Assembly (NCBI RefSeq): GCF_018127965.1
Contig: NZ_CP072350.1
Coordinates: forward strand, 930,001 to 994,000
Reading direction: 5' to 3'
Length of the DNA: 64,000 bases
Source: Prevotella melaninogenica
Lineage (GTDB): Bacteria > Bacteroidota > Bacteroidia > Bacteroidales > Bacteroidaceae
Below the pieces are notes generated by a model. The model was not told where the DNA came from, made no database searches, and saw nothing but the letters and a program-made list of their open reading frames with translations. Both the position numbers and the translations under genes were made by a program. Shown here piece by piece: positions 5,484 through 58,455 of this stretch. The stretch's first letter is position 1. The number at the start of each line of letters is the position of its first letter.

Positions 5484-5663
5484 CTGTAACTTTCAGTCAA
5501 TCAATGTGTTGTAAAATAGCATAAGAAAAGGTGCTTAGTTAGACGCTAACTAAGCACCTTTAAGGCTTCAATTAAGCATCTTTTGAACGTCAATTAAGGC
5601 TTAATTGGAAAGCAACTAAGCGTCAATTCATTCTTTAAAGATGACTTTTATATTACAAATTTG
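5484..5663 (-). repeat. ~180-bp phased-palindrome element, copy A (reverse orientation)
   Basis: From left to right the copy has a cap region (5484-5520, starting CTGTAAC), then units at 5526-5546, 5547-5569, 5570-5591, 5592-5613 and from 5614, then a head containing TATTACAAAT (5651-5660). The first two units together form a perfect hairpin with 16-bp arms and a 3-base loop at 5527-5561. The copy fills the space between two convergent genes, where the hairpin could also terminate transcription. No gene is seen in 5315-5699. Confidence 0.8.
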
Positions 5664-5699
5664 GTAAGGGTAGGAGGTGATAATTCCTTCCCTTGGACT

Positions 5700-8243
5700 T
5701 TATTCAGCCGATACAATATCAAACTTTAGTTTCTCACTATCTTTCTCTTTAGATACTTCGATAGTGTCACCAGCCTTGATTTCGCCAGAGAGAATCAGTT
5801 CGCTCAGTCCGTCCTCGATATGGTTTTGGATAGCACGCTTCAATGGACGCGCACCAAACTGAACATCATATCCCTTGCTTGCAACGAACTCCTTAGCTTC
5901 ATCTGTTATCTCCATCTCGTAGCCTAATTCATGCACACGCTTGAACAAACCCTTGAGTTCAATGTTGATAATCTTCTTGATAGCTTCGAGGTCGAGTTGG
6001 TCGAAAGTGATAATCTCGTCCAAACGGTTGAGAAACTCTGGTGCGAACTGCTTGCTAAGACTTTTCTGAATGATAGCACGAGCACGCTCCTTGTCGCCCT
6101 CACTCTGTGAAAGGCCATTCAAGTTAGTAGCCTTAAAGCCGACACCCTGTCCGAATTCCTTCAGCTGACGTGTACCCGCATTTGATGTCATGATAATCAC
6201 CGTGTTGCGGAAGTCTATCAAACGACCGTTACCATCAGTCAATCGACCTTCATCGAGTACCTGCAAAAGCATGTTGAATACGTTACCATGTGCCTTCTCT
6301 ATCTCATCAAGTAAGACAATAGAGTAGGGATGACGGCGTACTTTCTCTGTCAACTGTCCGCCTTCATCATAGCCAACGTATCCTGGAGGCGCACCAACAA
6401 GGCGAGAGGTGTTGAAACTTTCTGTATATTCGCTCATATCAATGCGTATCAAAGCATTGGCAGAACCAAACATCATCTCAGCAAGTCGCTTGGCAAGATA
6501 AGTCTTACCCACACCCGTAGGACCTAAGAACATAAACGCACCGATAGGGTGGTTAGGGTCTTTCAAACCTACACGGTTACGCTGAATAGCCTTTACCATC
6601 TTGTCGATGGCTGCATCTTGTGCAATAACAACCTGCTTGAGTTCAGCATCCATATTCTTCAATCGGATGCCTTCTGCCTCCTGCATGCGCTGTACCGGTA
6701 CGCCTGTCATCATAGAGACAACATCAGCAATGGCTTCTTCATTGATTTCAACCTTATCTTCGGTATCACCTTTCTGCCATTTCTCCTGCTCCTCTTTGAG
6801 CGTCTTTTCCAATTCAGTCTGCTTATCACGGAAACTTGCAGCCAACTCAAAGTTCTGATTCTTTACAGCAGCTTGCTTCTTCTCTTGCGCTATTTCAATG
6901 TCTTTCTGAATATCGAGAATAGTCTGTGGCACCTTTACATGTTGCAGATGAATACGTGAACCTGCTTCGTCGATGATGTCTATCGCCTTATCAGGGAAGA
7001 ATCTATCAGTGATATATCTGTCTGCATACTTCACACAAGCCTTCAGCGCATCCTCTGTATAACTTACATGATGATGTGCTTCGTATCGATCTTTTATATT
7101 CTCAAGAATCTGTAATGTCTCTTCAACTGTTGTTGGCTCAACCTGTACCTTTTGGAAACGACGCTCTAAGGCACCGTCTTTCTCGATAGACTTACGATAT
7201 TCGTCAAGTGTCGTTGCACCGATACATTGTATAGTACCTCTTGCCAAGGCTGGTTTGAGGATATTAGCAGCATCCATTGAACCTGGTGAAGAACCTGCTC
7301 CGATGAGTGTGTGAATCTCATCAATAAAGACGATAATGTCTGGATTCTGTTCGATTTCCTTAATCAATGCACGGATACGCTCCTCAAATTGACCACGATA
7401 CTTTGTTCCAGCCACGACAGCTGTCAAGTCAAGTGTGATGACACGTTTGTTAAAGAGAATTGGAGAGGTGAGATGCTTCACAATAAGTTGTGCTAAACCC
7501 TCAACAATAGCACTCTTACCAACACCTGGTTCACCAATGAGAATAGGATTATTCTTCTTTCTTCTGCCAAGAATCTCACTGACACGCATAATCTCTTTCT
7601 CTCTACCTACAACAGGGTCGAGTTTTCCCTCGGTAGCTGCTTGAGTAAGATCGGTACCGAAACTATCGAGTACGGGTGTCTTTGATTTTGTACGTGGAGC
7701 CTGTGTTGTCTTGGCATTATTGCTGCCTTCCGACGATGAAGATGACATCATATCATCATCCATTTCTTCCTCGTCAGCCATTCCTATACCATTCTTTGGT
7801 TGGTTTGCGCGTTGTTGTAACATCGATATTGCGTTGTTATAATTGAATCCATTTTCTTCCATTACCTTCTTTGCACCATTATTAGAAGAATCATGCAATA
7901 TTGCAAGGAAGAGATGAAGGATATCTACTGTCTGTGCATGTTGTATACGTGCCTCAAGTACAGCTAATTTCAATATATTATTAGCCTGCTCGTTCAAAAG
8001 CATATCAGGCACATAAGAAGTTGGGTCAATTGTTTCCTCCTGAAGTCTTCTTTCTATTTCTTTCTTTATATTGTCTATATCAACCTTCCATTGGTTGAAT
8101 AGTTCCCATACTGGTCCTGACTTCTCTCTCAGAATGGCGAGCATGATATGCTCAGGAGCAACCGACTCACTTGTCAGTCGTTCTGCTTCCTCTCTGCTGA
8201 ATGAAAGTATTTCAGAGACCTTTGGGGAGAATTGATTCATCAT
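5700..8243 (-). CDS. clpC: ClpC-type AAA+ unfoldase subunit of Clp protease
   Basis: This 847-residue chaperone unfolds proteins for ClpP. It has N-terminal Clp repeats (about 1-145) and an acidic/serine-rich linker (about 160-185). The first AAA+ module has Walker A GEPGVGKS (about 238-244) and Walker B VFIDEIH. A UVR-like segment follows ([16 protein letters not shown]), then a second AAA+ module with GPTGVGKT, and the C-terminal D2-small domain. The middle UVR-like segment and overall length favour ClpC over ClpB or ClpA. It is a monocistronic minus-strand gene; the next minus-strand genes upstream end in their own terminator. Confidence 0.95.
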
Positions 8244-8324
8244 ATCCTAACCTTTCTTTTCTTTACTTGTATCTGTGGACAATATGTCCTGTATTAGTAG
8301 GGTTTTATAAACAAAAGGTGTGCC

Positions 8325-8370
8325 AAAAACAAAGAATCGGACATACATGGGTGTTGTAAGTCCGATTCTA
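8325..8370 (-). terminator. Intrinsic terminator of the starch synthase/DUF4270 operon
   Basis: On the minus strand, AGAATCGGAC and GTCCGATTCT form a 10-bp stem followed by TTTGTTTTT, 15 bp after the stop of the 43-aa ORF. Confidence 0.8.
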
Positions 8371-8384
8371 CATTTTATATTCTA

Positions 8385-8516
8385 TTACAGTGCCTCGTCG
8401 TCAGGCTTCTGAAGTTTCGCTTTGGGCTGTCGTCCCAAGTACTTTTTCTTACGAAGCCAAGCCGCCTTGCGCTGCTCATATTCCTCACGATGACGTTCCA
8501 AGAAGTTATCTGCCAT
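8385..8516 (-). CDS. Short conserved-looking basic protein (43 aa)
   Basis: The ORF encodes a 43-residue, highly charged peptide (starts MADNFLERHREEYEQ, then a Lys/Arg-rich middle and an acidic end). Its ATG overlaps the end of the DUF4270 gene by 11 bp (AATGGCAGATAA carries both the start and the upstream stop), implying translational coupling. A strong terminator follows directly. Similar short charged ORFs occur in Bacteroidales, but no function is known to me. The coupled start and tight terminator are the main support for it being real. Confidence 0.6.
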   Translation of the reverse strand: MADNFLERHREEYEQRKAAWLRKKKYLGRQPKAKLQKPDDEAL

Positions 8517-9951
8517 TGAACTTACCGTATATTATCGAAATCTGAATGTTCTTTCCAGTCGATGTGTTTCCCAATAACTTTGTGCTTGAGAGACCCATGT
8601 CGTGGGAAACCTTAGTAATAATTGTTTTCTGAGTGCTGCCTGAACCTTGTGTTACAGTCTGCAATTCAACTGGTACAATTACAACTTTACCCCATGCAGG
8701 CATCGATGTGTTGCGTGAGAAGAGGTTGATAATTCCCGAGATATTGTTGAACACATAGCTATTCGTTGTCTTGTTGTAACTTGCCAAGAACGAAGTCTTG
8801 TTGTCTGGTAGACGGTTGTTCGCAAAGAACGACTGTAGACTATCGGCAGCTACCATAACGACATTCTGTGGTATTCCAAACTGATAATAGGATGTTGTAC
8901 TATTGTTTTCTCGGTAGAGTACAACCTTAGCCGAGTTGATAGAATCGTTTGTATGTCCTGCCATAATGTCAGATACAGGGAGCGTTAACTTTGTGAACAA
9001 GCCTGCTGGAGTCTTAAGATAAGTATGACCAGACTCACTTGCTAACTGCTGTAACTTAGTATTGTCGTTAGAGAAGTTTGTCAACTGAAGGACCTCTTCA
9101 GTACTTACAAAGTTGGTTGATATCTCTGATACCTTGCCATTCTGCTTGTTCTTGAAGTAGATATTCAACTGTGCAATCTGTATATGTGCCATAGAACCAG
9201 AGCCACCATCAACCTTGAAGTAGAATCCTGGACATATTTCATGCAAGAAACGATAAGGATTACGGAATGCAGCAGGGTTCTGCTGATACTTGCGAAGCAG
9301 GTAAGTTCCGTAGTTGTTATATGTAACACCGCTCTTATCCTTATACTGTTTGTTTAGACGAACAATGATGTTACGGTTATAATTTCTTCCATTTCGGATG
9401 CTATCAGATTCTGTATAGTCTGCCAGTGTGAATGAACGTTTCTCCGCAATGCCACCCTGTGCAGCTGGACGAATATAGCCTTTTGCTTCTGGATCGAAGT
9501 TAGAGTAGTAGGTTACTCCTTCCTCAACAGGCTTTGAAAGTTCGTATGCTGTCAGCTTCATTTGGCTCAGAGAATCGCCGTAGTAGGTGCTGTAATACAG
9601 TCTTACATCACATGAATCAGCTATAATCTCATTGTTTGCATCGCGACTCATGATAGAGTCCTTTGCTGGCAACTCAAAATTACTAAGCACATGGAACTGA
9701 GACATCAGGTTACCTGTAACAGTTGTATTTGTTTCAGGGTCAACCATTCTGCCCAAATATCCAGTTGAAGAACGTGCTATAACACTGCCAGCAACCATTG
9801 TTTCAGAAGCTACGCTGAAGGTGTCTGCCTTTATAGAAAGTTTGTCGCCATTGTCGATAAGTGAGCCTCCAAGGGTATCTGTAGTATCATCACATGATAC
9901 CATTCCGATACAAGCTGCAAGCATACAGGCTGCAATGAATTTCTTTCTCAT
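8506..9951 (-). CDS. DUF4270 family lipoprotein
   Basis: This is a 481-residue exported lipoprotein. The signal peptide ends in a lipobox-like GMVSC with Cys20, followed by the acidic DDTTDTLGGSLID typical of DUF4270 proteins. The body is beta-rich, with segments predicted to resemble adhesin or carbohydrate-binding folds; no catalytic motif is seen. It lies 33 bp after the short starch synthase gene and overlaps the 43-aa ORF. This gene order (starch synthase, DUF4270) recurs in Bacteroidales by my recollection, although a functional link to glycogen is unproven. Confidence 0.85.
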   Translation of the reverse strand: MRKKFIAACMLAACIGMVSCDDTTDTLGGSLIDNGDKLSIKADTFSVASETMVAGSVIARSSTGYLGRMVDPETNTTVTGNLMSQFHVLSNFELPAKDSIMSRDANNEIIADSCDVRLYYSTYYGDSLSQMKLTAYELSKPVEEGVTYYSNFDPEAKGYIRPAAQGGIAEKRSFTLADYTESDSIRNGRNYNRNIIVRLNKQYKDKSGVTYNNYGTYLLRKYQQNPAAFRNPYRFLHEICPGFYFKVDGGSGSMAHIQIAQLNIYFKNKQNGKVSEISTNFVSTEEVLQLTNFSNDNTKLQQLASESGHTYLKTPAGLFTKLTLPVSDIMAGHTNDSINSAKVVLYRENNSTTSYYQFGIPQNVVMVAADSLQSFFANNRLPDNKTSFLASYNKTTNSYVFNNISGIINLFSRNTSMPAWGKVVIVPVELQTVTQGSGSTQKTIITKVSHDMGLSSTKLLGNTSTGKNIQISIIYGKFNGR

Positions 9952-9984
9952 TTAGAATATCTTAATTGTATGAATCTAAGTGTA

Positions 9985-10794
9985 TCAGAACAATTTATTA
10001 TAAAATTCTGAATACTTCTCCTTTAGTTCAGCATCATCGATAGCATGTTCCAAAAGCTGCTTATCGTGAGTCTTAGCATAGTTGATAAGATTAGCGTGAG
10101 CTTTGTCGCTGGTACCAATGACACCGTCTGAATAGTCGATAGCCAGTTTACCTAACTCCATGAAATCGAAGTCGTCACCATAGTTCTTCAAGTGTTTAGC
10201 TTTCGCCTCACGGAACTCAAGACAATGCTTAAAGTTCGTTCCCAAGCTGTCTTGTGGCTGTTCTGCGAAGAGTGAAGTCACAACCTTTGAATTGGCAAAC
10301 TGTGGCTCATCTTTGTAGGCAGTCTTTACATAGAATGGGATAACAGAAGACATCCAACCCTGGCAATGAATTACATCAGGAGCCCATCTTAGCTTCTTTA
10401 CTGTCTCCAATACGCCTCTTGCAAAGAAGATAGCACGCTCGCCGTTGTCAGGATAGTCGTTGCCCAATTCGTCCTTTGTCATTGCAGGACGCTTTTGGAA
10501 ATAATCTTCATTATCAATGAAATAAACCTGTATACGTGTCTGCGGAATACTTGCCACCTTGATAATCAATGGATGGTCGGTATCGTCTATAATCAAGTTC
10601 ATACCTGAAAGGCGAATAACCTCGTGCAACTGCCCTCTACGTTCGTTTATATTTCCCCATCTTGGCATGAATGTACGGATCTCAAATCCAGCTTCTTGCA
10701 TGATGTGTGGCATTTCTGAGCCATAGAAAGACATCTCTGTCTCAGGCACATATGGCATGATTTCTTGATTAACAAATAATACTTTTTTTCCCAT
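9985..10794 (-). CDS. Short glycogen/starch synthase-like protein (GT5 N-terminal domain only)
   Basis: The protein is 269 residues. It begins KKVLFVNQEIMPYVPETEM and contains PDVIHCQGWMSS, matching the N-terminal Rossmann domain of GT5 glycogen synthases. A full GlgA has about 480 residues, and the C-terminal nucleotide-sugar-binding domain is absent. The KxGGL loop of classical GlgA is replaced by ETEMSFYGSEMP. Stand-alone proteins of this size are common in Bacteroidales, so this is a family form rather than a truncation here. Catalytic activity alone is doubtful. It is first in an operon with DUF4270, with a promoter at 10880-10887. Confidence 0.8.
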   Translation of the reverse strand: MGKKVLFVNQEIMPYVPETEMSFYGSEMPHIMQEAGFEIRTFMPRWGNINERRGQLHEVIRLSGMNLIIDDTDHPLIIKVASIPQTRIQVYFIDNEDYFQKRPAMTKDELGNDYPDNGERAIFFARGVLETVKKLRWAPDVIHCQGWMSSVIPFYVKTAYKDEPQFANSKVVTSLFAEQPQDSLGTNFKHCLEFREAKAKHLKNYGDDFDFMELGKLAIDYSDGVIGTSDKAHANLINYAKTHDKQLLEHAIDDAELKEKYSEFYNKLF

Positions 10795-10879
10795 TCTTTA
10801 TGTTAGAATTTTTGTTTCTGCAACTATTGCAAGCAAACGCATAGAATGTTAGTCTTTTCTGGGCGCAGCTTATCTTCTG

Positions 10880-10887
10880 CAAAGGTA
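10880..10887 (-). promoter_or_regulatory. -7 promoter element for the starch synthase operon
   Basis: The reverse strand reads TACCTTTG (TAnnTTTG), giving a leader of roughly 80 nt. Confidence 0.6.
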
Positions 10888-11023
10888 CGAAAAAAAAATG
10901 AGATAACTCCTGCTTTCGGCTGAAAACAAATAAAAAGTAGGGCATGTTGAGATTATTTAATTAAAATCTCGTCTATTTAATTATTTTGTTGTTACTTTGC
11001 ATCGATTTTAATTTTAGAGACTG

Positions 11024-11875
11024 ATGAAAGTTATCCAAAAGATTGTTGAACTTCAGAACGAACTTTTCTCTTGTCGCAAGGAAAACAAAACTATTGGATT
11101 AGTTCCTACGATGGGTGCGTTGCATGATGGTCATGCGTCACTTGTGAAACAAAGCGTCAAGGAGAATGATATAACAGTCGTTTCTGTTTTTCTTAATCCT
11201 ACCCAGTTTAATGATAAGGGAGATTTAGAACGTTATCCTCGCACATTAGAGGCTGATTGTAAGCTTATTGAAGCTTGTGGAGCAGACTATGTCTTTGCCC
11301 CATCTGTTGAAGAAATCTACCCCAAACCAGATAATCGTCAATACGAGTTTCCACCACAATCTACAGTGATGGAGGGTGCAAAACGCCCTGGTCATTTCAA
11401 TGGTGTTTGCCAAGTTGTCAGCAGATTATTCTATATTGTTCATCCAGACAAAGCCTATTTTGGTGAGAAAGATTGGCAGCAGATAGCTGTTATCAAACGT
11501 CTTGTTGACTTCATTGGCATGAAGGACGAAATAACGATAGTGGAGTGTCCAATTATACGTGATGCGGATGGTTTGGCTATGAGTTCACGCAATATGCTAT
11601 TGACAGCCGACGAGCGTGCTATAGCACCGAAGATCTACGAGGCATTAAGTCAAAGTGTAGCGTTCTCTAAGACCCATACTGTAGCAGAAACACGTGAAAA
11701 AGTCATTGCCGATATCAATGCAGTAGACGGACTTGAGGTAGAATATTTTGAGATTGTAGATGGCAACACGCTTCTTGAAGTAAATACATGGGAAGCGTAT
11801 GTTGTAGGTTGTATTACTGTTTATTGTGGCCATACGCCTATCCGACTTATTGACCACATAAAATACAGAGGATAA
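11024..11875 (+). CDS. panC: Pantothenate synthetase (pantoate-beta-alanine ligase)
   Basis: The enzyme joins pantoate to beta-alanine with ATP, the last step of vitamin B5 synthesis. Length (283) is normal. Visible motifs are [14 protein letters not shown] (HxGH-type adenylation site), FLNPTQF, the KDWQQ segment, and the KMSKS-like AMSSRN. It sits 9 bp before panD, which makes the beta-alanine co-substrate, so the two form an operon. Upstream is a near-consensus TTACTTTG box and a GAGATT/AATCTC inverted repeat (10951-10972). Confidence 0.97.
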
Positions 11876-11884
11876 TAAGAAAAG

Positions 11885-12229
11885 ATGCAGATAGAAGTAT
11901 TAAAAAGTAAGTTGCACTGTGCTACTGTCACAGAGGCAAATCTTCATTATATGGGTAGTATTACTATTGATGAAGACTTGTTGGATGCTGCTAATATGAT
12001 AGCAGGTGAGAAGGTTCAAATTGTGAATAACAATAATGGTGAACGCTTTGAGACCTATATTATTAAGGGAGAAAGAGGCTCTGGCTGTATCTGCCTTAAT
12101 GGTGCAGCAGCTCGCAAGGTTGTAGTAGGGGATGAGGTAATTATCATCTCTTATGCATTGATGGATTTTGAAGAAGCAAAAACCTTCAAGCCTTCAATTG
12201 TATTTCCAAAGGAAGGCAACAAGTTATAA
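11885..12229 (+). CDS. panD: Aspartate 1-decarboxylase precursor
   Basis: This pyruvoyl-dependent enzyme makes beta-alanine from aspartate. The 114-residue proenzyme has the self-cleavage site Gly24-Ser25 (in YMGSITID); Ser25 becomes the pyruvoyl group. Tyr57-region [12 protein letters not shown] and the NGAAAR motif are as in the family. It is co-transcribed with panC (9 bp gap). Confidence 0.97.
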
Positions 12230-12309
12230 ACAGATAGAAAAGGGTATCAGTCAGAGGATAAACCCTTTGGCTTTGTAAGTGTAGGACGTATCGTCCTTAC
12301 TGTTATAAG

Positions 12310-12427
12310 CACACAATCACATTTCTTCTTTCAATGTAAGGCAAGGAGATTATTTATTAATAAGGTGTAACTCAATAATAGATATTCCTCTTTCCTACTT
12401 GGAAAAGGAAATGTTATTGTGTGTTTT
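12310..12427 (+). terminator. Long structured region, probable terminator after panD
   Basis: CACACAATcACATTTC (12310-12325) pairs with GAAATGTtATTGTGTG (12407-12422), followed by TTTTT. The ~80-base loop contains a smaller hairpin around TTTCC/GGAAA. The region 12230-12542 holds no gene. Confidence 0.45.
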
Positions 12428-12458
12428 TCTATGTCCTATATTTTGATGTACTATTATC

Positions 12459-12493
12459 AAAAAAGCGAGGGTATGTTGTAATGACACACCCTC
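12459..12493 (-). terminator. Intrinsic terminator after the biotin carrier gene
   Basis: On the minus strand GAGGGTGTGT and ACATACCCTC form the stem, followed by GCTTTTTTG, about 50 bp after the carrier stop codon. Confidence 0.8.
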
Positions 12494-12968: not shown

Positions 12969-12977
12969 TGTTGTCTA

Positions 12978-15055: not shown

Positions 15056-15236
15056 ACTTTGTAATAAAAAATCAAACATCGAAAACTTAAAGATGCTCTT
15101 TTGGCTTCTAAAAGATGTCCAATTGAATTGCAAAAGGTGCCCTTTTGGAGTCTTACTAACGCCCTTTTGAAGTCCAATTAATCACATTTATAAAATTAGT
15201 TTTGTAACTCGTTGTGCATTAGTAAGTTATAAAATC
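15056..15236 (+). repeat. ~180-bp phased-palindrome element, copy B
   Basis: Head ACTTTGTAATAAAAAATCA (15056-15074); units at 15089-15109, 15110-15131, 15132-15154, 15155-15175 and 15176-15197 (21, 22, 23, 21, 22 bp); cap from 15200 (TTTTGTAACTCGTTG... ending TTATAAAATC). It is the closest relative of copy C, with the same unit-length series. Confidence 0.85.
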
Positions 15237-15415
15237 CGTTTGAAAGCACATGTTTTGAGGAAATTCTGGGTTTTTTCTTCTTGCTTTTGTTATAATATTT
15301 CAATCTCGTTAGGTTGTTGTTTTATAACTTATTTGGATGTTATCTTTATTTTGTTAGGTATCTTCTGAAATAAGATTATTCTTTGTTTTTAACCCTGTTA
15401 TCTCCTTAATGATAA

Positions 15416-25567: not shown

Positions 25568-26614
25568 ATGAAACGTTCAGTATTACTTTCGGTTTTATTT
25601 GGAGCTATGCCGTTGCTATCAATGGCACAAGATGACCTTTATTTTACCCCGTCAAAGGCGGATCAGTCTGCTTATCAACAGAGTAAAGTGGAGGAGGACC
25701 GCCCTGTTTATTATAGCGGTATTGGTAAGTCTAATGACGAATACAATCGTCGTGGTAAGTATAATTATAAGAAAATAGGAGTTGATTCTCTTGGAAACGA
25801 TATCTTTATGTCTCGTATCTCTACGTTGCATGGCGACTCTGTAGTGTTAGATACTATCTATGGAGGTTTCACTCGTCAGTACGAAAGTGATAACGATGAC
25901 TTTGCTTATAGCAGAAGAATGAGTCGCTTCGATGGCTTCTGGGGTGGTTATTATGACCCATGGTTTGCAGGTCGCTCTTCGTTCTATGTAGGATGGGGAT
26001 GGCGTTCACCTTATTATGGTGGCTGGTATGACAGATGGGATGATCCATGGTCTTATGGTTATTATGGTGGCTATCCTTACTATAGCTATTATGGTGGTTA
26101 TCCATATTATGGCTACTACGGCGGTTATCCATACTATTATGGTTATGCTGACTATGGTTGGTACAACCCATGGAGCAGATATTATGGCTATTATGGTGGC
26201 TATCCTTACTATGGTTATAGAAGAGGTGGCTACTATGCTTACAATGGTCATACGGGTACAGCTAATCACTGGGGTAACTCTCCAAGAGACTTTGGTTCTC
26301 AAGCAAGGAGTGGTTCCTATGACAACGGACGCTCATCTTACTCAAATCGTCGTGGCAATGTAAACCAGTATGGTAACAATGCATCTCAGAGTAATGATAT
26401 GAGAAGTTACTATGACCGCTTTGGTGGCGCACGTCAGAATGGTTTTGAGAATCAGACACGCTCTTATTCTCAGCCAGAGCGCTCTACATTCTCACAGCCT
26501 TCACCAAGCTCATTTGGTGGTGCAAGAGGTGGTGGTAGCTTCGGTGGCTCATATTCTGGAGGTGGAGGCAGTAGCTCTGGTGGCTCACGCAGTGCCTTCG
26601 GTAGTCATAGATAG
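25568..26614 (+). CDS. Exported Tyr/Gly-rich low-complexity protein
   Basis: The protein has 348 residues with a signal peptide ending SMAQ (1-21). The N-terminal part (22-115) is ordinary. Then comes an aromatic region (about 120-225) built on 9-residue YYGGYPYYG-type repeats encoded by 27-bp DNA repeats (about 26060-26219). An Asn/Arg/Ser-rich stretch and a Gly/Ser-rich tail (about 310-340) follow. No enzyme motif is present. Tyr-Gly-rich repeats suggest a surface, matrix or amyloid-like structural protein; this is inference. It lies 42 bp upstream of a FadL-type porin gene on the same strand and probably is co-transcribed. Confidence 0.75.
   Translation: MKRSVLLSVLFGAMPLLSMAQDDLYFTPSKADQSAYQQSKVEEDRPVYYSGIGKSNDEYNRRGKYNYKKIGVDSLGNDIFMSRISTLHGDSVVLDTIYGGFTRQYESDNDDFAYSRRMSRFDGFWGGYYDPWFAGRSSFYVGWGWRSPYYGGWYDRWDDPWSYGYYGGYPYYSYYGGYPYYGYYGGYPYYYGYADYGWYNPWSRYYGYYGGYPYYGYRRGGYYAYNGHTGTANHWGNSPRDFGSQARSGSYDNGRSSYSNRRGNVNQYGNNASQSNDMRSYYDRFGGARQNGFENQTRSYSQPERSTFSQPSPSSFGGARGGGSFGGSYSGGGGSSSGGSRSAFGSHR
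26060..26219 (+). repeat. 27-bp coding repeats (YYGGYPYYG units)
   Basis: TATTATGGTGGCTATCC-type units start at 26060, 26087 and 26114 and recur from about 26186, giving near-identical nonapeptides. Copy number could vary by slippage or recombination. Confidence 0.7.
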
Positions 26615-28332: not shown

Positions 28333-28510
28333 TTTTGTCAAAATAAATCCTCATTAGCATTTTTAATAACCATGAATAGCATTCTAATTAAGCCTTAATT
28401 GACTTGTTAAAGATGCTCTTTAAGATGCTAACTAACGCCCTTTTGAAAGCTAATTAAGCACCTTTTTTTGTACAACTTTATAACGTCTTGATAACTAATG
28501 AGTTATTAGA
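28333..28510 (+). repeat. ~180-bp phased-palindrome element, copy D
   Basis: Head TTTTGTCAAAATAAATCC (28333-28350); units 28386-28408, 28409-28429, 28430-28451 and 28452-28473; cap CTTTATAACGTCTTGATAAC from 28476 to about 28510. It lies between convergent genes, starting directly at the terminator of the porin gene. No gene is seen in 28271-28691. Confidence 0.85.
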
Positions 28511-28691
28511 GTATTGGAAAATGCTTCTATTTCTTGTTTTTAAACAGAAATATCCGTAAGTTGTGTAAATATATTTCATTACTGAAGATGTTTGGGTTTA
28601 AGATGGAATATGCTTATAATAAGCCGTGAGAAACCTCTAATAAACTATCGTATGTCGCCTATGGTTTCCTCTATTACTTATAAATGAGCGC

Positions 28692-34563: not shown

Positions 34564-34748
34564 TTTAAGGATAATAAACTTCAAAATTATATTTAATTTA
34601 TTTTCAAGGAGATATTCAATCCTAATAATTGTTAGGTCATTATTGATATGATTATTTGCAAATTATAATGTTCTTGTTTTGAATTTTGTTTACATTTTTG
34701 TTTGTGTTTTACGCTGATACAAGTCATAAAAAGAGAATTTTACTTAGC

Positions 34749-34930
34749 TTTGTAACTCTTTTATTTCGAGAGTCTTACATAATTGAATTTGAAAAGGTGC
34801 TTGTTTGGCTTCTAAAAGGGCGTTAATAAGACCTCAAAAGAGCACCTTTTACAAGCCTAAAGGGCGTCTTTTCGAAGCTAAAAGAGCATCTATTAATAAG
34901 GTGGCGTTTGAAAAATATTTACATAAAAGG
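34749..34930 (-). repeat. ~180-bp phased-palindrome element, copy E (reverse orientation)
   Basis: Cap starting CTTTGTAACTC at 34749; units 34792-34813, 34814-34835, 34836-34858, 34859-34879 and 34880-34901 (22, 22, 23, 21, 22 bp); head around AAATATTTACATAAAAGG (to 34930). Confidence 0.85.
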
Positions 34931-46341: not shown

Positions 46342-46449
46342 TTTGCTCCTTATAATCTACGTTGATAGCTTTCTTCATCTTGTAAAAATACTTACACAAG
46401 ATTGACTAGTTTTGCTCCAAATAAGCAAAATATTAGTCATAATATGGAC

Positions 46450-46627
46450 CTTTGCAACTAACAGACTATCAGCAAATTATAAAATAGCTTGGTAAAAGGT
46501 GCTTAGTTTGCCTTCAAAAGGGCGTTAACAGCATCGCAAAAGGGCGTCTTTAGGAAGCCAATTAAGCCTTAATTCGAACGCAATTAAGCCTTGTTTAAAA
46601 ATAAAGATATGATTTTTATTACAAAAC
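46450..46627 (-). repeat. ~180-bp phased-palindrome element, copy F (reverse orientation)
   Basis: Cap from 46450 (TTTGCAACTAAC... ending TTATAAAATAG); units 46494-46515, 46516-46537, 46538-46559, 46560-46581 and 46582-46603, all 22 bp; head GATTTTTATTACAAAAC ending at 46627. The unit AATTAAGCCTTAATT (46560) is a perfect 7-1-7 palindrome. Confidence 0.85.
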
Positions 46628-48146: not shown

Positions 48147-48672
48147 GATATTATCTTCGATTTAGTGGTATACTTCATTGAATGTTTTTGAGATGGATAA
48201 TATTGTAACACTAAACCATTTGATATTCTCTTCCAAACGAATGTGATAACATAATAAAAGAGCCAGTTCTGTAATAGAAAACTGGCTCTTTATTATACTA
48301 TAAAATCTTGTTTAGTATCTGAAATATGATTTTTGTTACAAATCCTGAGTGATGTTTCAATGACAAAAACTGACAAAGGCATTATCTTCTATATTTAATG
48401 AGGTTTTTCAAGACTTTGTTATTTCGATTTGTTAAGACAATAAAGTCAAAGTATATAAAAAATAAAAGTCCCAGACTGTTGGTCCAGGACTGAAAGATTA
48501 CTTGTCTCACGACAACTAATCTTCTAACCTTAATAATCTAATACCATGAAAAACACGTTGCAAAGATATCTAAATCTTGTTATATTTCCAAATATATAAT
48601 GTTAAATAAGGTAAATGTTAAAATTTTGTCTTCTAACTTTTGAAATATCTCTACATTTGTGCCTTTACTGGT
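48147..48672. other. 526-bp spacer between convergent yihY and the GH125 gene
   Basis: The spacer holds the yihY terminator, an isolated ATATGATTTTTGTTACAAA sequence (48324-48342) matching the head of the ~180-bp elements, and a short AGTCC/GGACT hairpin near 48468-48491. No gene is seen. Confidence 0.55.
48257..48295 (+). terminator. Intrinsic terminator after yihY
   Basis: AAAGAGCCAGTT and AACTGGCTCTTT form a 12-bp stem followed by ATTAT. Confidence 0.85.
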
Positions 48673-52264: not shown

Positions 52265-52343
52265 TATATTTTAGAATTGCATAAAAGAAGATACTCTAAA
52301 CGGTCTTCTTTTATCCTTTTATATCTAATCTATGGTTTTACTT

Positions 52344-52769
52344 TTATCCTTTCTTAGAACACTTATAGTTAAGAAACTCTGTGTATTCACGGATATAATC
52401 ATCCTCTTCGAAAGGATCTTCTGCCAAAACAAGGCATACGGCTCCTGATGAAAAATCATCGAGCGTACGCCATGTATCAGTCTCAACTAAGAGTCCTTGA
52501 TAAGGATGATTCAAGAGGAAAGATTGCTTATCACGCCCATTATCGAGGGTAACCGTGAAGGAACCGCTAACGGCAATGATGAATTCTCGGCAATGTTTAT
52601 GGGTATGACCACCACGGCAAGCACCTGAAGGTACATCGTATGTCCAATAAACACGAGAAATGTTGAAAGGAATATCTTTCATTCCCTCAGCAATAGAGAG
52701 GTTACCACGTGGGTCCACCATCTTTTGTAAGGAGATAATCTTTCCTATTGAAGCTTCTGTTTTTTCCAT
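52344..52769 (-). CDS. fdtA: dTDP-4-keto-6-deoxyglucose 3,4-ketoisomerase (FdtA/QdtA family)
   Basis: The protein has 141 residues in one cupin domain. It starts with a DPRGNLSIAEG motif and contains VPSGACRGGHTHKHCREF, where the two His are the catalytic pair of FdtA-type isomerases; a WRTLDDFSSGAVCLVLA motif follows. It moves the keto group from C4 to C3 of the RmlB product. FdtA (giving Fuc3NAc) and QdtA (giving Qui3NAc) cannot be told apart here. It is 79 bp upstream of the GNAT gene. Confidence 0.88.
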   Translation of the reverse strand: MEKTEASIGKIISLQKMVDPRGNLSIAEGMKDIPFNISRVYWTYDVPSGACRGGHTHKHCREFIIAVSGSFTVTLDNGRDKQSFLLNHPYQGLLVETDTWRTLDDFSSGAVCLVLAEDPFEEDDYIREYTEFLNYKCSKKG

Positions 52770-52796
52770 TCTTACAGCCTTTAGACTATTCAGTCT

Positions 52797-53978
52797 TTAT
52801 TTCTTCATATAGGGATCAGTACCCAACACGGTTGCGGCAACACGCTTAGTTTTATCACGAAGTGCATCCATATCTGTTCCTACTTCTCCATAACAGAGTG
52901 CTACACCCATACGACGACCCACGTGAGCAATTGGTTTACCGAAGATACGTAGGCATGTTCTATCTTCGTTGCAAGCATCTAATAGGTTGTATGATAAAGG
53001 TTTGTCAGTCTCAATAGGAGAAAGAATTACAGCAGAACAACCTGCATGTTCAAGGTGGATAGCAGGGATTGGGAGTCCCATTACAGCACGGAAATGAAGT
53101 TCAAACTCGCTGAAGTTAGTGGTATGTGCCAATGTGACCATACCTGTATCATGTGGACGAGGTGATAATTCAGAGAAGATAACTTCTCCTTTCTTTGTCA
53201 AGAAGAATTCTACTCCCCAAATACCACATCCTGTTAGTGCGCGTGTTACTTCATTGGCAATATGTTCTGCCTGTCGTAATGATTCTTCAGAGATAGCGTA
53301 TGGTTGCCAACTTTCACGGTAATCACCCCCTTTCTGTATGTGTCCGATTGGTGGGCAAAAGAGGGTAGGACCATTCTTCTGTGTCACTGTAAGTAGCGTG
53401 AACTCACTCTCAAACTGAATAAACTCTTCAATAATAACTTCTTTTACATCGCCACGTGCGCCATCCATAGCATTATGAAAAGCTTTTTCAAGTTCTTCAT
53501 CATTGTGAACATAGCTCTGACCGTGTCCACTTGAACTCATTAAAGGCTTAACAACACATGGGAAACCAATCTCGTCAGCAGCAGCTTTGAACTCATCATA
53601 TGTCTTTGCATAGAAGTATTTGGCTGTTCTTAAACCCAAGTCACGTGCTGCAAGGTCGCGTATGGCACGACGATTCATGGTGAAGTTTACTGCGCGTGCT
53701 GATGGAGCAACTTGTATTCCACGTTCTTCATAATCAAACAAACGTTCAGTTCTGATTGCTTCAATCTCTGGAATGATTAGGTCAGGTTTGTGCTTATCTA
53801 CAACAGCATCAAGTGCATTACCATCAAGCATGTCTATTACTTCCGACTCATCAGCTACCTGCATGGCTGGCGCATTCTCATAACTATCGCAAGCAATGAC
53901 ATATTGTCCAGTGCGTTTAGCCGCAATAACGAACTCTTTGCCCAGTTCACCTGAGCCTAATAACAAGATTTTTTTCAT
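52797..53978 (-). CDS. purT: Formate-dependent phosphoribosylglycinamide formyltransferase
   Basis: This ATP-grasp enzyme of purine synthesis uses formate and ATP to formylate GAR. The 393 residues have the N-terminal GSGELGKE nucleotide-fold motif, an ATP-grasp core ([27 protein letters not shown]) and a C-terminal [10 protein letters not shown]. It lies between fdtA (27 bp) and rmlB (102 bp), an unusual place for a purine gene. Confidence 0.96.
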
Positions 53979-54019
53979 TTGAAGATGTGTTGTCTATCTT
54001 TTGATTGTGAGAAGGTTTT

Positions 54020-54057
54020 ACACCCTCGCCGTATAATAAAGAGTTAGACGAGGGTGT
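54020..54057. other. Hairpin in the rmlB-purT gap
   Basis: ACACCCTCG and CGAGGGTGT form a perfect 9-bp stem with a 20-base loop. There is no T tract directly after it on either strand, so it is only a weak terminator candidate. Confidence 0.5.
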
Positions 54058-54080
54058 GAGATTATATTTTAGTAGATTTA

Positions 54081-55235
54081 TTATCTTCCTTTTTTTGTGT
54101 ACATCATGTCATAGTACTTTTGGTAATCTCCAGAAGTAACCTCTTGAATCCAGTCTTGATGCTCTAAGTTCCAACGGATAGTTTTTACAATACCGGCAGC
54201 AAACATTGTTTCAGGATACCAACCTAACTCATTCTTTATCTTTGTTGGGTCAATGGCATAACGTGCATCATGACCAAGACGGTCTGGGACATGTGTGATT
54301 AACTCTTCATTTATCCAGCTAATATCAATGTCACCATTTGCGGTTTTGACCTGCTTCTTGAGGATAGTACGGAGATTCTTATCCTCTGCCATCATGTCAT
54401 GGATAGTCTTTATTGTGAGTTTAACGATGTCGATATTCTTCATTTCATTATGTCCACCAACATTGTAAACTTCACCTACACGACCTTCACGTACAACTAT
54501 ATCAATAGCTTTGCAATGATCCTCTACATACAACCAGTCGCGTACATTCAAACCCTCACCATATACTGGGAGTTTCTTTCCCTCGAGGATGTTATTGATA
54601 ATTAATGGAATCAACTTTTCTGGGAAGTGGTAAGGACCATAGTTGTTTGAACAACGTGTAATACTGATAGGCATATGATAAGTGTCGTGATAAGCCATTA
54701 CAAAATGGTCAGCACTTGTCTTGCTGGCAGAATATGGGCTATGTGGGCAGAGTGGAGTCTCCTCTGTAAAGTAGCCTTCTGCTCCCAATGAACCATACAC
54801 CTCGTCTGTTGATACCTGATGATAACGCTTTCCTTCTTTCCATGTTGGATAACCCTGTTCGTCCTTACCTGTCACCCATGCACGACGTGCAGCATCCATG
54901 AGGTTCTGTGTACCGAGAATGTTTACTGAAAGGAACAACTGTGGGTCTTCAATTGAACGGTCAACATGACTTTCAGCTGCAAAGTTTACGAGGTAGTCAA
55001 TATCATATTCAGCAAAGAGTTTGTCGGCAAGTTCACGATCACGAATGTCACCCTTTACAAAGATGCAACGCTCGTTATCAATATCATCTTTGATAGTACC
55101 GAGATTACCTGCATATGTAAGTGCATCGAGGACGATAACTTTAATATCTTCATTCACATACTTCTTATGAAGTAAATACTTAATGTAGTTTGCACCGATA
55201 AAACCAGCAGCACCAGTTACTAAATAAGTTTTCAT
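54081..55235 (-). CDS. rmlB: dTDP-glucose 4,6-dehydratase
   Basis: The protein has 384 residues, slightly longer than the usual 350. The NAD motif VTGAAGFIGANY, FAAESHVDRS, STDEVYGSLG and the catalytic YSASKTSADHF (YxxxK) are intact. It makes dTDP-4-keto-6-deoxyglucose, the FdtA substrate. rmlA (dTDP-glucose pyrophosphorylase) is not in the window. It is first of the sugar genes in this minus-strand run. Confidence 0.96.
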   Translation of the reverse strand: MKTYLVTGAAGFIGANYIKYLLHKKYVNEDIKVIVLDALTYAGNLGTIKDDIDNERCIFVKGDIRDRELADKLFAEYDIDYLVNFAAESHVDRSIEDPQLFLSVNILGTQNLMDAARRAWVTGKDEQGYPTWKEGKRYHQVSTDEVYGSLGAEGYFTEETPLCPHSPYSASKTSADHFVMAYHDTYHMPISITRCSNNYGPYHFPEKLIPLIINNILEGKKLPVYGEGLNVRDWLYVEDHCKAIDIVVREGRVGEVYNVGGHNEMKNIDIVKLTIKTIHDMMAEDKNLRTILKKQVKTANGDIDISWINEELITHVPDRLGHDARYAIDPTKIKNELGWYPETMFAAGIVKTIRWNLEHQDWIQEVTSGDYQKYYDMMYTKKGR

Positions 55236-55331
55236 ATCTATGTTATTTAAAATGTTTGTTATTCTTTTGGGTAAGTTTTAATAGTTTTTTATTGTAATCG
55301 AATCTTGATATTGTTCTTTTACAATTCAGAT

Positions 55332-55844
55332 TTATTTATTTTCTTGTTGTTTATTTCCTAATGTTATAACCTCGCAATCAGTAAATTTATCACCTTCGAT
55401 GGTTAATCTCACTAAAGTTCTATCTTTATGCCATCCGCGAAGACCAGCTGCACCTGGATTGATATGAAGTAGGTTTAGTGTCTTGTCGAATTGTATTTTG
55501 AGGATATGTGAATGTCCATCAACAAAAAGGTTGGGTGGAGAAGCATAGAGCATACTCTGTACTGAACGGTCATAACGTCCAGGATAACCTCCAATATGTT
55601 TAAGTAGCACGTCAACATCCTCGCATTTAAAGCGCAGAACATCCCGATAGCGGTTGCGCATAGTGTAATCATCTATATTCCCACATACAGCGTGAAAGAT
55701 GGGTTTCATTGCCTCAAACTTATCCGCAACTTCTAATGAACCTATATCACCTGCGTGCCATATCTCATCACATTCCCCAAGATAGTATTCGTATTTATCA
55801 TCCCAGTAGCCATGAGTATCAGAGATTATACCGATTCGTTTCAT
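55332..55844 (-). CDS. YfcE-type metallophosphoesterase
   Basis: The protein has 170 residues with the calcineurin-like metal motifs: SDTHGYWDDK (DxH), HAGDIGS (GD), VCGNIDDY (GNxD) and DGHSH. It is probably a phosphodiesterase of unknown substrate. It follows the cytidylate kinase-like gene with a TAATG overlap, so both are translationally coupled. Confidence 0.9.
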   Translation of the reverse strand: MKRIGIISDTHGYWDDKYEYYLGECDEIWHAGDIGSLEVADKFEAMKPIFHAVCGNIDDYTMRNRYRDVLRFKCEDVDVLLKHIGGYPGRYDRSVQSMLYASPPNLFVDGHSHILKIQFDKTLNLLHINPGAAGLRGWHKDRTLVRLTIEGDKFTDCEVITLGNKQQENK

Positions 55845-56464
55845 TAAATACCTTTCCTTTTGATAAAATCTGCTATCAGATCCTTTGTTTTTTCTAAGCC
55901 AAGTATACTGGCATCAATGCAAAGGTCATAACTTTCAGCATGCCCCCAAACCTTTGTTGTGTAATAGTTATAGTATTTGGCACGCTCGCTTTCACCATTT
56001 TCAATAAACTTACGAGCTTCTTCTTTTGAACATCCACGTCGCTCACATACATTAGCAATACGAGTGTCCATTGAAGCTGTTATAAAGATATTGATTGTGT
56101 TTGGATTATCGCGTAATACGTAATCTGCTGTTCTACCAACAAATACACAGCGTGGGTTCTGCTTCGCTACTTCACGAATGGCATCACTTTGGAACTGATA
56201 AAGACTTTCCTGTGAGAAATTACTCTTATAAAAGTCATTGTCACCTAAAAGAGGAAGGTGTATATGAAAGTGTCCTTTCATAAATCCTTTTTGCTCGTCG
56301 TTTTGCTCAAAGAACTTCTCTGAAAACCCACTTTCCTTAGCTGCAATGTTAAGGATCTCACGGTCATAGTATTGGCAATCGAATTCTTCAGCAAGCATCT
56401 TAGCGATAATATGACCACCACTGCCAATCTGACGACCAACGTTTATGATTAGTTCCTTTTCCAT
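55844..56464 (-). CDS. Cytidylate kinase-like family protein
   Basis: The protein has 206 residues. It starts with a modified P-loop (INVGRQIGSGGHIIAKML) followed by YDREIL, the pattern of the cytidylate kinase 2 family rather than Cmk itself. FVGRTADYVL and the Lys/Arg lid region are present. Its nucleotide substrate is unverified. It lies 15 bp after the MATE gene and overlaps the phosphoesterase start (TAATG). Confidence 0.88.
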   Translation of the reverse strand: MEKELIINVGRQIGSGGHIIAKMLAEEFDCQYYDREILNIAAKESGFSEKFFEQNDEQKGFMKGHFHIHLPLLGDNDFYKSNFSQESLYQFQSDAIREVAKQNPRCVFVGRTADYVLRDNPNTINIFITASMDTRIANVCERRGCSKEEARKFIENGESERAKYYNYYTTKVWGHAESYDLCIDASILGLEKTKDLIADFIKRKGI

Positions 56465-56479
56465 ATTTAGATTCTTTAT

Positions 56480-57856
56480 TTATGAATTTAAGTTTTGATT
56501 GTTCACACTTTGTTTTTTCAACCGACGCATATAAGCTATCATAATGATAGCTGCAACTAATGATGCCAAGAAGTCACTTGAAGGCAATGATGCCCATACA
56601 CCATTTAAGTTGAAGAAATGTGGTAGGATAACAAGTAATGGAATTAAGAATAGTAATTGGCGAGAAAGAGATAAGAAAATGCTTATCTTTACTTTACCAA
56701 TACACTGAAAGAAGTTTGTTACAACCATCTGAAATCCCACGACAGGATACATCATCATGTTTATTTGAATAGCCTTAATTGCTTGGCGAATTAATTCTGG
56801 GTCCTTTGTGAACATACGTGCACAGTAATATGGAGCTAAATGAGCAATTAGCCAACCTGTAACCATTATCCCTGTTGCAGCAAAGATAGTAAGTTTCAAT
56901 ACACGCATAAGTCTATCAGTCTGCTGTGAACCATAGTTATATCCTGCTATAGGCTGCATACCTTGGTCTAATCCGATGACAAACATTACAAATATCATAG
57001 CCACACTATAAGCTATGCCGAATGCTCCAACAGCCATATCACCACCGTATCTGACAAGTTGATTATTCATAAAGATAACCACAATGCAAGCACAAACATT
57101 CATCAAGAATGGGGAAATACCAATAGAGATGATATTTTCTACCAAATGTCTTTTAAGGCGATAGATTCCACGCTTTAAATGTAAAATCTCATCTTTGTTA
57201 GTCAACTGCTTCATCTGCCAGCATAATGCCAATGCTTGAGATAAGACTGTGGCGAAAGCGGCACCACGAATTCCCCAGCCCCAGAGTCTGATAAAGATAA
57301 AGTCTAAGACTATATTCATCAAGACTGTGAAAATCGTAGCCATCATTGCCTGACGAGGTTTTGATGCAGCACGAAGTACAGCATTCATTCCAAAGTACAT
57401 GTGAGAGATGACATTTCCCGCCAAAATAACCTCCATAAAACTACGGGCATAGGGGATTGTAGCGTCACTTGCACCAAAGAATCGCAAGATTGGGTCAAGA
57501 AAGATAAGGCAGATAATACCAAATGCACTTCCTATAATCAAATTAAGCGTTACTGTATTACCGAGGATATTTTCTGCGGTTTCATAGTCACGCTGACCTA
57601 ACTTCACACTGATAGACGTAGATGCTCCTATTCCTACAGCTGCACCAAAGGCTGCACCAAGATTGATAAAAGGGAAAGTAATAGCTAAACCTGATATAGC
57701 CAATGGTCCTACAATCTGACCAATGAATATTCGGTCTACTATGTTATAGAGTGAGGCTGCTATCATCGCTATAATTGCTGGGAACGCATATTGTGCCAAC
57801 AATTTACCAACAGGTTTGGTACCTAACTCTAAAGTTGCATTCTTATTATCCATCAA
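56480..57856 (-). CDS. MATE family multidrug efflux transporter
   Basis: The protein has 458 residues with about 12 hydrophobic segments in two repeated halves, starting LGTKPVGKLLAQYAFPAIIAMIAASLYNIVDRIFIG. It exports cationic drugs, metabolites or lipid-linked precursors by H+ or Na+ antiport; substrate unknown. It is first gene of the MATE/cytidylate kinase-like/phosphoesterase operon, with a TACATTTG element 53 bp upstream (57909-57916). Confidence 0.93.
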   Translation of the reverse strand: MMDNKNATLELGTKPVGKLLAQYAFPAIIAMIAASLYNIVDRIFIGQIVGPLAISGLAITFPFINLGAAFGAAVGIGASTSISVKLGQRDYETAENILGNTVTLNLIIGSAFGIICLIFLDPILRFFGASDATIPYARSFMEVILAGNVISHMYFGMNAVLRAASKPRQAMMATIFTVLMNIVLDFIFIRLWGWGIRGAAFATVLSQALALCWQMKQLTNKDEILHLKRGIYRLKRHLVENIISIGISPFLMNVCACIVVIFMNNQLVRYGGDMAVGAFGIAYSVAMIFVMFVIGLDQGMQPIAGYNYGSQQTDRLMRVLKLTIFAATGIMVTGWLIAHLAPYYCARMFTKDPELIRQAIKAIQINMMMYPVVGFQMVVTNFFQCIGKVKISIFLSLSRQLLFLIPLLVILPHFFNLNGVWASLPSSDFLASLVAAIIMIAYMRRLKKQSVNNQNLNS

Positions 57857-57908
57857 AATTCTATTACTTGTCTACGAATGAATGGAATTCCTCCTTATAC
57901 TATGCTTG

Positions 57909-57916
57909 CAAATGTA
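57909..57916 (-). promoter_or_regulatory. -7 promoter element for the MATE operon
   Basis: The reverse strand reads TACATTTG (TAnnTTTG). Confidence 0.6.
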
Positions 57917-58269
57917 CAAAAAAAAAATGAGAAAACCTATTTGTAGCGTAATGAATTGTAGGTTTATAAAACCTATTATTGCTATTTTTTAGGGTCTTCA
58001 GTATTTTGGAGTGATAAAGTTTGCCACTTAAGGTTAGGTTTCTGACGAAATGTCACACGGAGAAAAGGAAAGAACGGAAGATTATTAAAACAAAGCAATG
58101 TAGTTATCAAGAATCTGTACGCTATACCTTCGTCGCTCTTTGTGCCGTCGGCACCTCCGTGACATTGCGTTTACCTCCGTCCCCTCCGTGACTCCGTGTG
58201 CCTATTATATAAGACTTTTAGTTTGTCACTCCATATTTCGGAAGAACCACAATTTATTCCTATGTCATT

Positions 58270-58455
58270 TATTTTGTAAACTATTTTCGTACAGTTCAAA
58301 ACCAATACATGCTCTTTTGGCTTCTAAAAGACGCCCAATTGGCTTGCAAAAGGTGCCCTTTAAGCCCCTTACTAACGCCCTTTTGACGTCCTATTAATCA
58401 TCTTTTCTCGTGCTACTTTATAACTAATTGATTCCCTGTTGGTTGCAGACTTGCT
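58270..58455 (+). repeat. ~180-bp phased-palindrome element, copy C
   Basis: Head TATTTTGTAAACTATTTTC (58270-58288); units 58305-58325, 58326-58347, 58348-58370, 58371-58391 and 58392-58413 (21, 22, 23, 21, 22 bp); cap ACTTTATAACTAATTGAT from 58415. Unit lengths equal those of copy B, and the unit at 58371-58391 differs from its counterpart in B at one position. Confidence 0.88.

What the first reader, a model, noticed from the sequence alone, without database searches (positions are those of the whole stretch)
5484..58455. Family of six oriented ~180-bp intergenic elements made of phased 22-bp palindromic units
Copies A-F at 5484-5663, 15056-15236, 28333-28510, 34749-34930, 46450-46627 and 58270-58455 are each about 178-186 bp long. 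All have the same order: a TTTTGTAAnAAAA-type head, four or five units of 21-23 bp, the word AAGCACCTTTT or AATCATCTTTT, about 9 bp, then a TTTATAAC-N3-TTGAT cap. B, C and D run forward; A, E and F are reverse complements. Unit series repeat (B and C 21-22-23-21-22, E 22-22-23-21-22). Each unit is a degenerate 15-bp dyad such as AAAAGGTGCCCTTTT or AATTAAGCCTTAATT, so half-sites swap while spacing is kept at two helical turns. None lies between divergent genes; all are next to at least one gene 3' end. That is more order than decayed repeats would keep. They could be binding arrays for a dimeric nucleoid or chromosome-organising protein, mobile MITE-like units, or processed RNA hairpins. The function is inference.
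Basis: seen in the sequence. Interest (0 to 1): 0.88.

Follow-up and report, generated by a model that had tools for sequence, protein, structure and literature searches.

The report
Spaced DNA-bending repeats between Prevotella genes
The six repeats are real copies of a roughly 246-base element scattered between genes in this Prevotella genome, related in design to a repeat already reported from Prevotella intermedia, and their rigid spacing, phased curved-DNA array and a probable bending-protein site suggest that they assemble a protein-DNA structure, although what they do for the cell is untested.

Summary
Real, but redrawn. The window lies in a two-contig Prevotella genome. A profile finds six strong copies in the window; at least 162 were found in the genome. 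Each element is ~246 bp, not ~180: end motif TTTTGTAA-N2-AT-N-TTTCA, five 22-bp units, a cap, and the end motif again. Head-to-tail length is 246±1 bp in 36 of 37 core-only copies although the longest linker is nearly randomised. The cap carries a match (0-1 mismatch) to the recalled IHF consensus YAANNNNTTGATW at one fixed offset in 92 of 106 copies. RNA-hairpin readings are not supported. Of 106 copies examined, 17 have both ends of a MITE (mostly 586 or 652 bp, 8-bp target duplications) and 40 more part of its flanks, so part of the spread is transposition. Similar 22-bp arrays, with species-specific words where looked at, are abundant in 15 of 100 Prevotella genomes, including one whose elements match PINSR (Naito 2015) in length and position. 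So PINSR looks like one branch of a wider class. Best reading: a nucleoprotein-assembly element that works like E. coli RIB/BIME repeats. Function untested.

The parts
5414..5660 (-). Copy A, whole element (head 5641-5660, array 5526-5625, IHF-like site 5499-5511 exact, tail 5414-5431); span 247
15057..15302 (+). Copy B, whole element (head 15057-15076, array 15091-15190, tail 15285-15302; IHF-like site degenerate, best 3 mismatches); span 246
28333..28578 (+). Copy C, whole element (head 28333-28352, array 28367-28466, IHF-like site 28481-28493 exact, tail 28561-28578); span 246
34680..34926 (-).
46382..46626 (-). Copy E, whole element (head 46607-46626, array 46494-46593, IHF-like site 46467-46479 one mismatch, weak tail 46382-46399, PWM 3.4); span 245
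58272..58518 (+).
58519..58686 (+). Right flank of the MITE that carries copy F, with its right inverted-repeat end (58670-58686, two mismatches); flank homology on the left begins only at consensus position 147, so the left MITE end is missing or too diverged

Best explanation
A dispersed, non-coding, intergenic element of the PINSR kind that most likely works as DNA. Shown from sequence: a fixed ~246-bp frame made of a head motif, five 22-bp units, a cap with an IHF-consensus match and an inverted TTGTAAC/GTTACAA pair, and a tail motif that repeats the head. Inferred: the 22-bp array with A/T tracts every 11 bp is bent or wrapped by a protein; an IHF/HU-family protein bends the cap; the end motifs are held on set faces of the helix, so one nucleoprotein complex forms at intergenic sites, with an excess where genes converge, in the manner of E. 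coli RIB/BIME repeats (IHF, gyrase). Also shown: in this genome a MITE with 8-bp target duplications contains the element and has multiplied it.
For: Sharp ends and repeated end motif in 40 core-only copies. Length 246±1 in 36 of 37 copies while linker 3 has 34% pairwise identity against 28% outside and 75% in the array. Tail motif at one offset in 88 of 106 copies (101 of 106 within ±1), IHF-like site at one offset in 92 of 106. IHF consensus with 0-1 mismatches in 32 of 40 core-only and 63 of 66 other copies against about 5 and 6% in shuffles; in the conservation profile the specified bases stand out and the N4 positions are at 0.7, 0.5, 0 and 0 bits. G/C pattern peaks at 11-11.25 bp; predicted bend 100 degrees against 47±24 for dinucleotide shuffles, 24 of 40 core-only copies above the shuffles' 95th percentile. 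Similar arrays with other words in other Prevotella. Convergent gaps 35 of 106 against 13 of 124 element-free gaps, p=4e-5. Seven HU/IHF-family (PF00216) matches in the genome. None of 106 copies lies in a called ORF.
Against: No binding data. The subtype is rare in near relatives: G026 (P. veroralis by matching contig coordinates, YgiQ 89%) has 13 model matches, four above 70 bits, and G003 nine, two above 70 bits (where at most 28 candidates per genome were scored); their generic pattern counts are 6 and 17. So it is not essential. Downstream of ygiQ no such array was seen in 19 relatives, and in G003 the ygiQ-mmdA gap is kept and empty. The IHF-like site is weak or absent in G012 (1 of 9 at 0-1 mismatch), in most single-species examples (4 of 16), and degenerate in window copies B and D. 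The bending test is partly circular for species found by the A4/T4 pattern. The wedge values and the IHF consensus are recalled, not from a call. The convergent preference weakens against gaps of 100 bp or more (p=0.012). The neutral indel rate against which constant length is judged was not measured.
Confidence: 0.5

Rival explanations
1. A selfish non-autonomous mobile element: the array and end motifs are recognition sites for an unknown transposase or recombinase, and the fixed spacing is needed for its movement, not for the cell.
For: At least 162 copies here against 13 and 9 model matches in two near relatives (at most 28 candidates scored each); unit words are homogeneous inside a genome and differ between the species looked at; of the genomes examined at ygiQ only the window's has an array; a subset demonstrably moves inside a MITE.
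Against: No excess of flanking duplications and no shared head/tail sequence around core-only copies; near-random linkers with unchanged length in almost every copy suggest upkeep at each site rather than recent copying from few masters. No autonomous partner with the MITE ends: opposed end pairs less than 6 kb apart are at most 792 bp long.
Confidence: 0.33
2. An RNA element: transcribed hairpins acting as terminators, mRNA stabilisers or small RNAs.
For: Copy A has a perfect 16-bp hairpin (fold z -4.8); enrichment between convergent genes. Some pairs exceed shuffles: u1 right arm with u2 left arm (2 of 1000 core-only, 0 of 1000 all copies), whole u1-u2 (0 of 1000) and u3-u4 (1 of 1000) in all copies.
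Against: Seven other folded strands give z of about -1 to -2 and different shapes; the remaining long-range unit pairs do not exceed shuffles, and relatedness of copies may explain those that do; the cap stem does not covary; no Rfam match at gathering score.
Confidence: 0.08
3. Simply decayed copies of the MITE found here.
For: 17 of 106 copies have both MITE end regions and 40 more at least part of a flank; 3 of 40 core-only copies have an end-like site within the 1 kb examined, reversed control 0.
Against: Outside the 246-bp frame core-only copies fall at once to background identity while the frame keeps its length. No MITE-end-like site (up to 3 mismatches) in the 1-kb loci of 16 G108, 14 G010 and 9 G012 elements.
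Confidence: 0.07

Closest known systems
[quoted passage not shown] section 3.4 read in full, other passages)
   Same: Intergenic, non-coding, high copy number (177/184 there, at least 162 here). G108 elements have head, four 22-bp units, cap and tail at fixed offsets (~185 bp) and one lies downstream of a tnaA-like gene, as reported for PINSR. The tnaA match is below the family's curated cut-off, and the tnaA-like gene of G017 has no such array nearby.
   Different: Here five units, ~246 bp, other unit words, end motifs in direct instead of inverted order, and a subset inside a MITE. The section calls PINSR group-specific by PCR and mentions no internal units or protein site; searches show similar arrays across the genus.
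E. coli RIB/RIP and BIME repeats (PMC2817692, PMC1525189, PMC6379681: passages read; Boccard & Prentki 1993 seen only as a reference)
   Same: Dispersed extragenic repeats with an IHF site (RIB/BIME-1) or gyrase binding (BIME-2), described at 3' ends of transcription units.
   Different: No REP palindrome or GTAG tag was recognised by eye; built on 22-bp phased units; binding untested.
BrickBuilt MITE of Porphyromonas gingivalis (PMC4596501; abstract and passages read)
   Same: Intergenic MITE that carries a short-period tandem repeat; Bacteroidales.
   Different: 23-nt repeats of variable number (18 full repeats in one), ends GAGACCTTTGCA; here 22-bp pitch, constant number, ends GGTTCTTCCGTTAAATG.
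E. coli gyrase motif (PMC6379681, passages read)
   Same: ~130-bp motif with phased ~10-bp G/C variation; here ~110 bp of phased G/C variation.
   Different: Peak at 11-11.25 bp; no central cleavage motif tested; that paper reports gyrase sites negatively associated with IHF-occupied sites.
Plasmid iterons (recalled)
   Same: Several direct ~22-bp units phased on the helix.
   Different: Well over 100 chromosomal copies; no linked Rep gene was looked for.

Membership tests
PINSR | Intergenic, non-coding, well over 100 copies per genome | tested here: met
   0 of 106 copies in a called ORF; at least 162 copies
PINSR | 188-bp length and published consensus | tested here: not met
   Window family is ~246 bp. 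The PINSR consensus is in a figure and could not be compared; G108 elements (~185 bp, one downstream of a tnaA-like gene) are identified with PINSR by inference
PINSR | Restricted to the P. intermedia/nigrescens group | tested here: not met
   Generic 22-bp pattern: 15 of 100 genus genomes have 17 or more matches and at least five times control; not every one was inspected by eye
PINSR | No terminal inverted repeats | tested here: inconclusive
   3 of 40 core-only and 43 of 66 other copies have a MITE-end-like site in the 1 kb examined. In G108 the element's own end motifs lie inverted
MITE | Terminal inverted repeats and target duplication | tested here: inconclusive
   Subset: met; 17 end pairs, 13 held with flanks, 6 with an exact 8-bp duplication, one more exact with a 1-base shift and the other six with 1-3 mismatches. 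Core-only copies: not met
BrickBuilt | 23-nt tandem repeat of variable number, TIR GAGACCTTTGCA | tested here: not met
   22-bp pitch, constant unit number, different ends
RIB/BIME | IHF consensus inside the repeat | tested here: met
   0-1 mismatch in 95 of 106 copies of this genome; consensus recalled
RIB/BIME | IHF or gyrase binds it | not testable with these tools
   needs EMSA, ChIP-seq or Topo-seq
RIB/BIME | Built from REP palindromes, RAYT association | not tested
   No REP was recognised by eye; no RAYT search was run
RNA hairpin / terminator | Conserved covarying stem | tested here: not met
   exceptions u1-u2 and, in all copies, u3-u4
Rfam family | Match at gathering score | tested here: not met
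   0 matches in the window

The most novel reading that the evidence does not exclude
Across Prevotella there is one class of chromosomal element whose frame (end motifs, 22-bp phased array, IHF-like cap, fixed length) is kept while the 7-bp word inside each unit is rewritten from species to species at well over a hundred sites at once. That implies a sequence-specific architectural protein whose binding word turns over together with its whole genomic set of sites, or a curvature-only function in which the word is free to drift by concerted copying.
Probability: 0.25. Interest if true: 0.85.

Novelty: new variant of a known kind. Interest (0 to 1): 0.62.

Why it matters
It turns a repeat reported as a group-specific curiosity (PINSR) into a genus-wide class with a defined frame, gives a testable protein (an IHF/HU-family member) and a testable DNA property (curvature and fixed helical spacing), and shows a MITE carrying and amplifying such an element. 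If the protein reading holds, Bacteroidales would have a counterpart to the RIB/BIME repeats of enterobacteria, and the species-specific words would make co-evolution of a chromosome-wide site set directly measurable.

Tried and rejected
RNA hairpins or terminators: not supported by folds and covariation, with the exceptions told above. Regular chromosomal spacing: gap variation equals random on both contigs, for the 150 listed copies. End motifs as target duplications: head and tail of one copy are no more alike than those of different copies. Each unit a dyad: true for unit 3, partly for 1-2, false for 4-5. BrickBuilt membership: different pitch and ends. Autonomous partner of the MITE: none among opposed end pairs under 6 kb at up to two mismatches. 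Shared positions between species: downstream of ygiQ none of 19 relatives shows such an array; G100 scores highest (26) with a 22-bp tandem of another kind, and the score could miss strongly diverged arrays, though the profile also found nothing in the G026 and G003 ygiQ loci. Downstream of the clpC-like gene, of 18 relatives looked at, G108, G017 and G012 have arrays as copy A does; G026 reaches 27 but the profile finds nothing there; not tested against an expectation. Literature: 'PINSR' with Prevotella gives one paper; three other term sets give none; one search lists two, of which PMC5771137 passages were read and the other was not opened; RepRanger (PMC12306157) has no Prevotella in its main text. 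The library holds open-licence papers only; two searches gave long lists of which only PINSR, BrickBuilt and PMC5771137 were opened.
Full report
WHAT IS THERE. The window is G000:C2:930001-994000 of a 3.22-Mb genome in two contigs of 1.86 and 1.36 Mb. Its YgiQ protein is 89% identical to that of Prevotella veroralis DSM 19559 and P. multiformis, so it is a Prevotella; P. melaninogenica is my inference from size and two large contigs, no call names it. Copy B used as a BLAST query gives 40 matches in the genome, the number scored. A sequence-only model of 21 copies gives 150 matches, again the number scored, and six strong ones in the window. With A and C, which score below that list, and ten more found by a cap pattern, there are at least 162 copies. 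Four of the six window copies are in the list of 150, which suggests roughly 220 in all.

ORIENTATION AND LIMITS. The array strand is + for B, C, F and - for A, D, E. I held 106 copies with flanks, a sample weighted to high scorers, MITE-end hits and part of the low scorers. Forty of these have no homology to MITE flanks by a strict rule; 49 by a looser one. In the forty, information content is near zero until a head motif TTTTGTAATAATTTTTCACA, then present through array, cap and a second motif TTTTGTAAATATATTTCA, and near zero again after it. With PWMs trained on 35 copies outside the window, 7 of 8 tail hits and 8 of 12 head hits in the window are at elements; copy E's tail is missed. Spans in the window are 245-247 bp.

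SPACING. In 37 of the 40 core-only copies (three dropped for weak motif scores) head-to-tail length is 246 (22), 247 (10), 245 (4) and 244 (1). Pairwise identity is 75% in the array, 55-57% in head, cap and tail, 47, 39 and 34% in the three linkers and 28% outside. A linker that has nearly lost its sequence but not its length points to a constraint on spacing; this is inference, since I measured no neutral indel rate. In the P. intermedia-like genome G108, head and tail each lie at one offset in 15 of 16 copies.

THE ARRAY. Five units of 22 bp: A/T-rich stretches every 11 bp with G/C-richer 7-mers between. Unit 3 is a dyad, units 4-5 are not. Complementarity inside a copy mostly does not exceed that between copies. 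Exceptions: right arm of unit 1 with left arm of unit 2 (2 of 1000 shuffles in core-only, 0 of 1000 in all copies), whole units 1-2 (0 of 1000) and 3-4 (1 of 1000) in all copies, and weaker ones at about 2%; relatedness of copies could cause these. The G/C pattern peaks at 11-11.25 bp in all five groups tested; predicted bend is about 100 degrees in core-only copies against 47±24 for dinucleotide shuffles. For groups found by the A4/T4 pattern this is partly circular.

THE CAP. The conservation profile reads C A A, four weakly or not conserved positions (0.7, 0.5, 0, 0 bits), T T G A T A: the IHF consensus YAANNNNTTGATW as I recall it. Matches with 0-1 mismatch: 32 of 40 core-only, 63 of 66 others, 13 of 16 in G108; shuffles about 5, 6 and 14%. 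It is weaker elsewhere: 8 of 14 in G010 (shuffles 19%), 1 of 9 in G012, 4 of 16 single-species examples. The site starts at offset 114 in 92 of 106 copies. The genome has seven HU/IHF-family matches. A cap pattern gives 158 genome matches against 3 for its reverse; of the 100 that the tool listed, 90 fall at known cores and the other ten also have arrays.

THE MITE. Seventy-eight sites match GGTTCTTCCGTTAAATG within two mismatches, one for the reversed pattern. Seventeen opposed pairs of 569-696 bp remain after nested alternatives are dropped. Thirteen were held with flanks: six have an exact 8-bp duplication, one more is exact with a one-base shift, and six have 1-3 mismatches. The MITE consensus of 586 bp contains the whole element. 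No transposase-sized pair was found under 6 kb. End-like sites lie within the 1 kb examined in 43 of 66 other copies, 3 of 40 core-only copies and 0 of 39 loci of three other species.

ELSEWHERE. The model matches 30 of 100 genus genomes, own included, at most 28 candidates scored in each. Near relatives have few copies of this subtype, with the tail motif in four of four inspected and spans of 242-246 bp in three (the fourth, 255, has no clear head). A generic pattern of two A4G-N5-CT4 units, two mismatches allowed, hits 48 of 100; 15 have at least 17 matches and at least five times the reversed control (for example 440 against 1 in G108, 392 against 0 in G102); the own genome is less clean, 59 against 27. 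In 198 genomes of the order, own included, G264 (17 against 1) and G220 (9 against 0, a different tandem) stand out. The species inspected have their own 7-bp words. In the 80 named ygiQ loci, 12 arrays against 5 in reversed sequence is little above control.

GENES. 48 co-directional, 35 convergent, 23 divergent of 106; element-free gaps 85, 13, 26. Convergent excess p=4e-5, or 0.012 against gaps of at least 100 bp.

KNOWN. PINSR (PMC4755523; section 3.4 read in full, and passages) is a 188-bp intergenic repeat, 177 and 184 copies, said to lack inverted ends and to be specific to one group by PCR. G108 elements fit it in length and in position downstream of a tnaA-like gene (below that family's cut-off), though the tnaA-like gene of G017 has no array nearby. 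The window family is a sister design, not PINSR itself. BrickBuilt differs. RIB/BIME is the nearest functional likeness (passages).

VERDICT. Real; partly as described; new variant of a known kind. Mechanism: nucleoprotein assembly, 0.5; selfish mobile element, 0.33.

Noticed in passing
window 48641-48658 (-): A lone end-motif match (AAATGTAGAGATATTTCA, tail PWM 16.6) with no array found nearby; a possible solo end.
   Followed up: no
window 26053-26218: Imperfect 27-bp-spaced coding repeats (TTATGGTTATTATGGTGGCTATCC), a Tyr/Gly-rich stretch inside an ORF.
   Followed up: no
window 59829-59920 and 60293-60384: 92-bp direct repeat, 76% identical, at the starts of two neighbouring small ORFs: probably a tandem gene duplication.
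   Followed up: no
window 2905, 10878, 57907: Repeated TGCAAAnnTACnAAAAAAAA; reads as a Bacteroidetes-type promoter element on the other strand (recalled consensus).
   Followed up: no
L239, L240, L253 (G017, G108, G012) and window copy A: Arrays with different species-specific words lie just downstream of the same clpC-like gene.
   Followed up: partly
G264 (order, family f76), L176: 22-bp AAAAGTTAGACTTTT arrays outside the genus, 17 pattern matches against 1 control; possibly the same class.
   Followed up: partly
L237 (G003), downstream of the clpC-like gene: A different short tandem repeat (GTTAACTTAAAGTACGAGTGTAG, about 23-24 bp) in the gap where copy A lies in the window.
   Followed up: no
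L227 (G100), downstream of ygiQ: A 22-bp tandem of another sequence kind (AAAAAGTTTGCTGGTGAGCAGA).
   Followed up: no
G000:C1:307741-308010 and C1:558892-559047: Two of seven HU/IHF-family matches lie within 500 bp of an element; not tested against chance.
   Followed up: no
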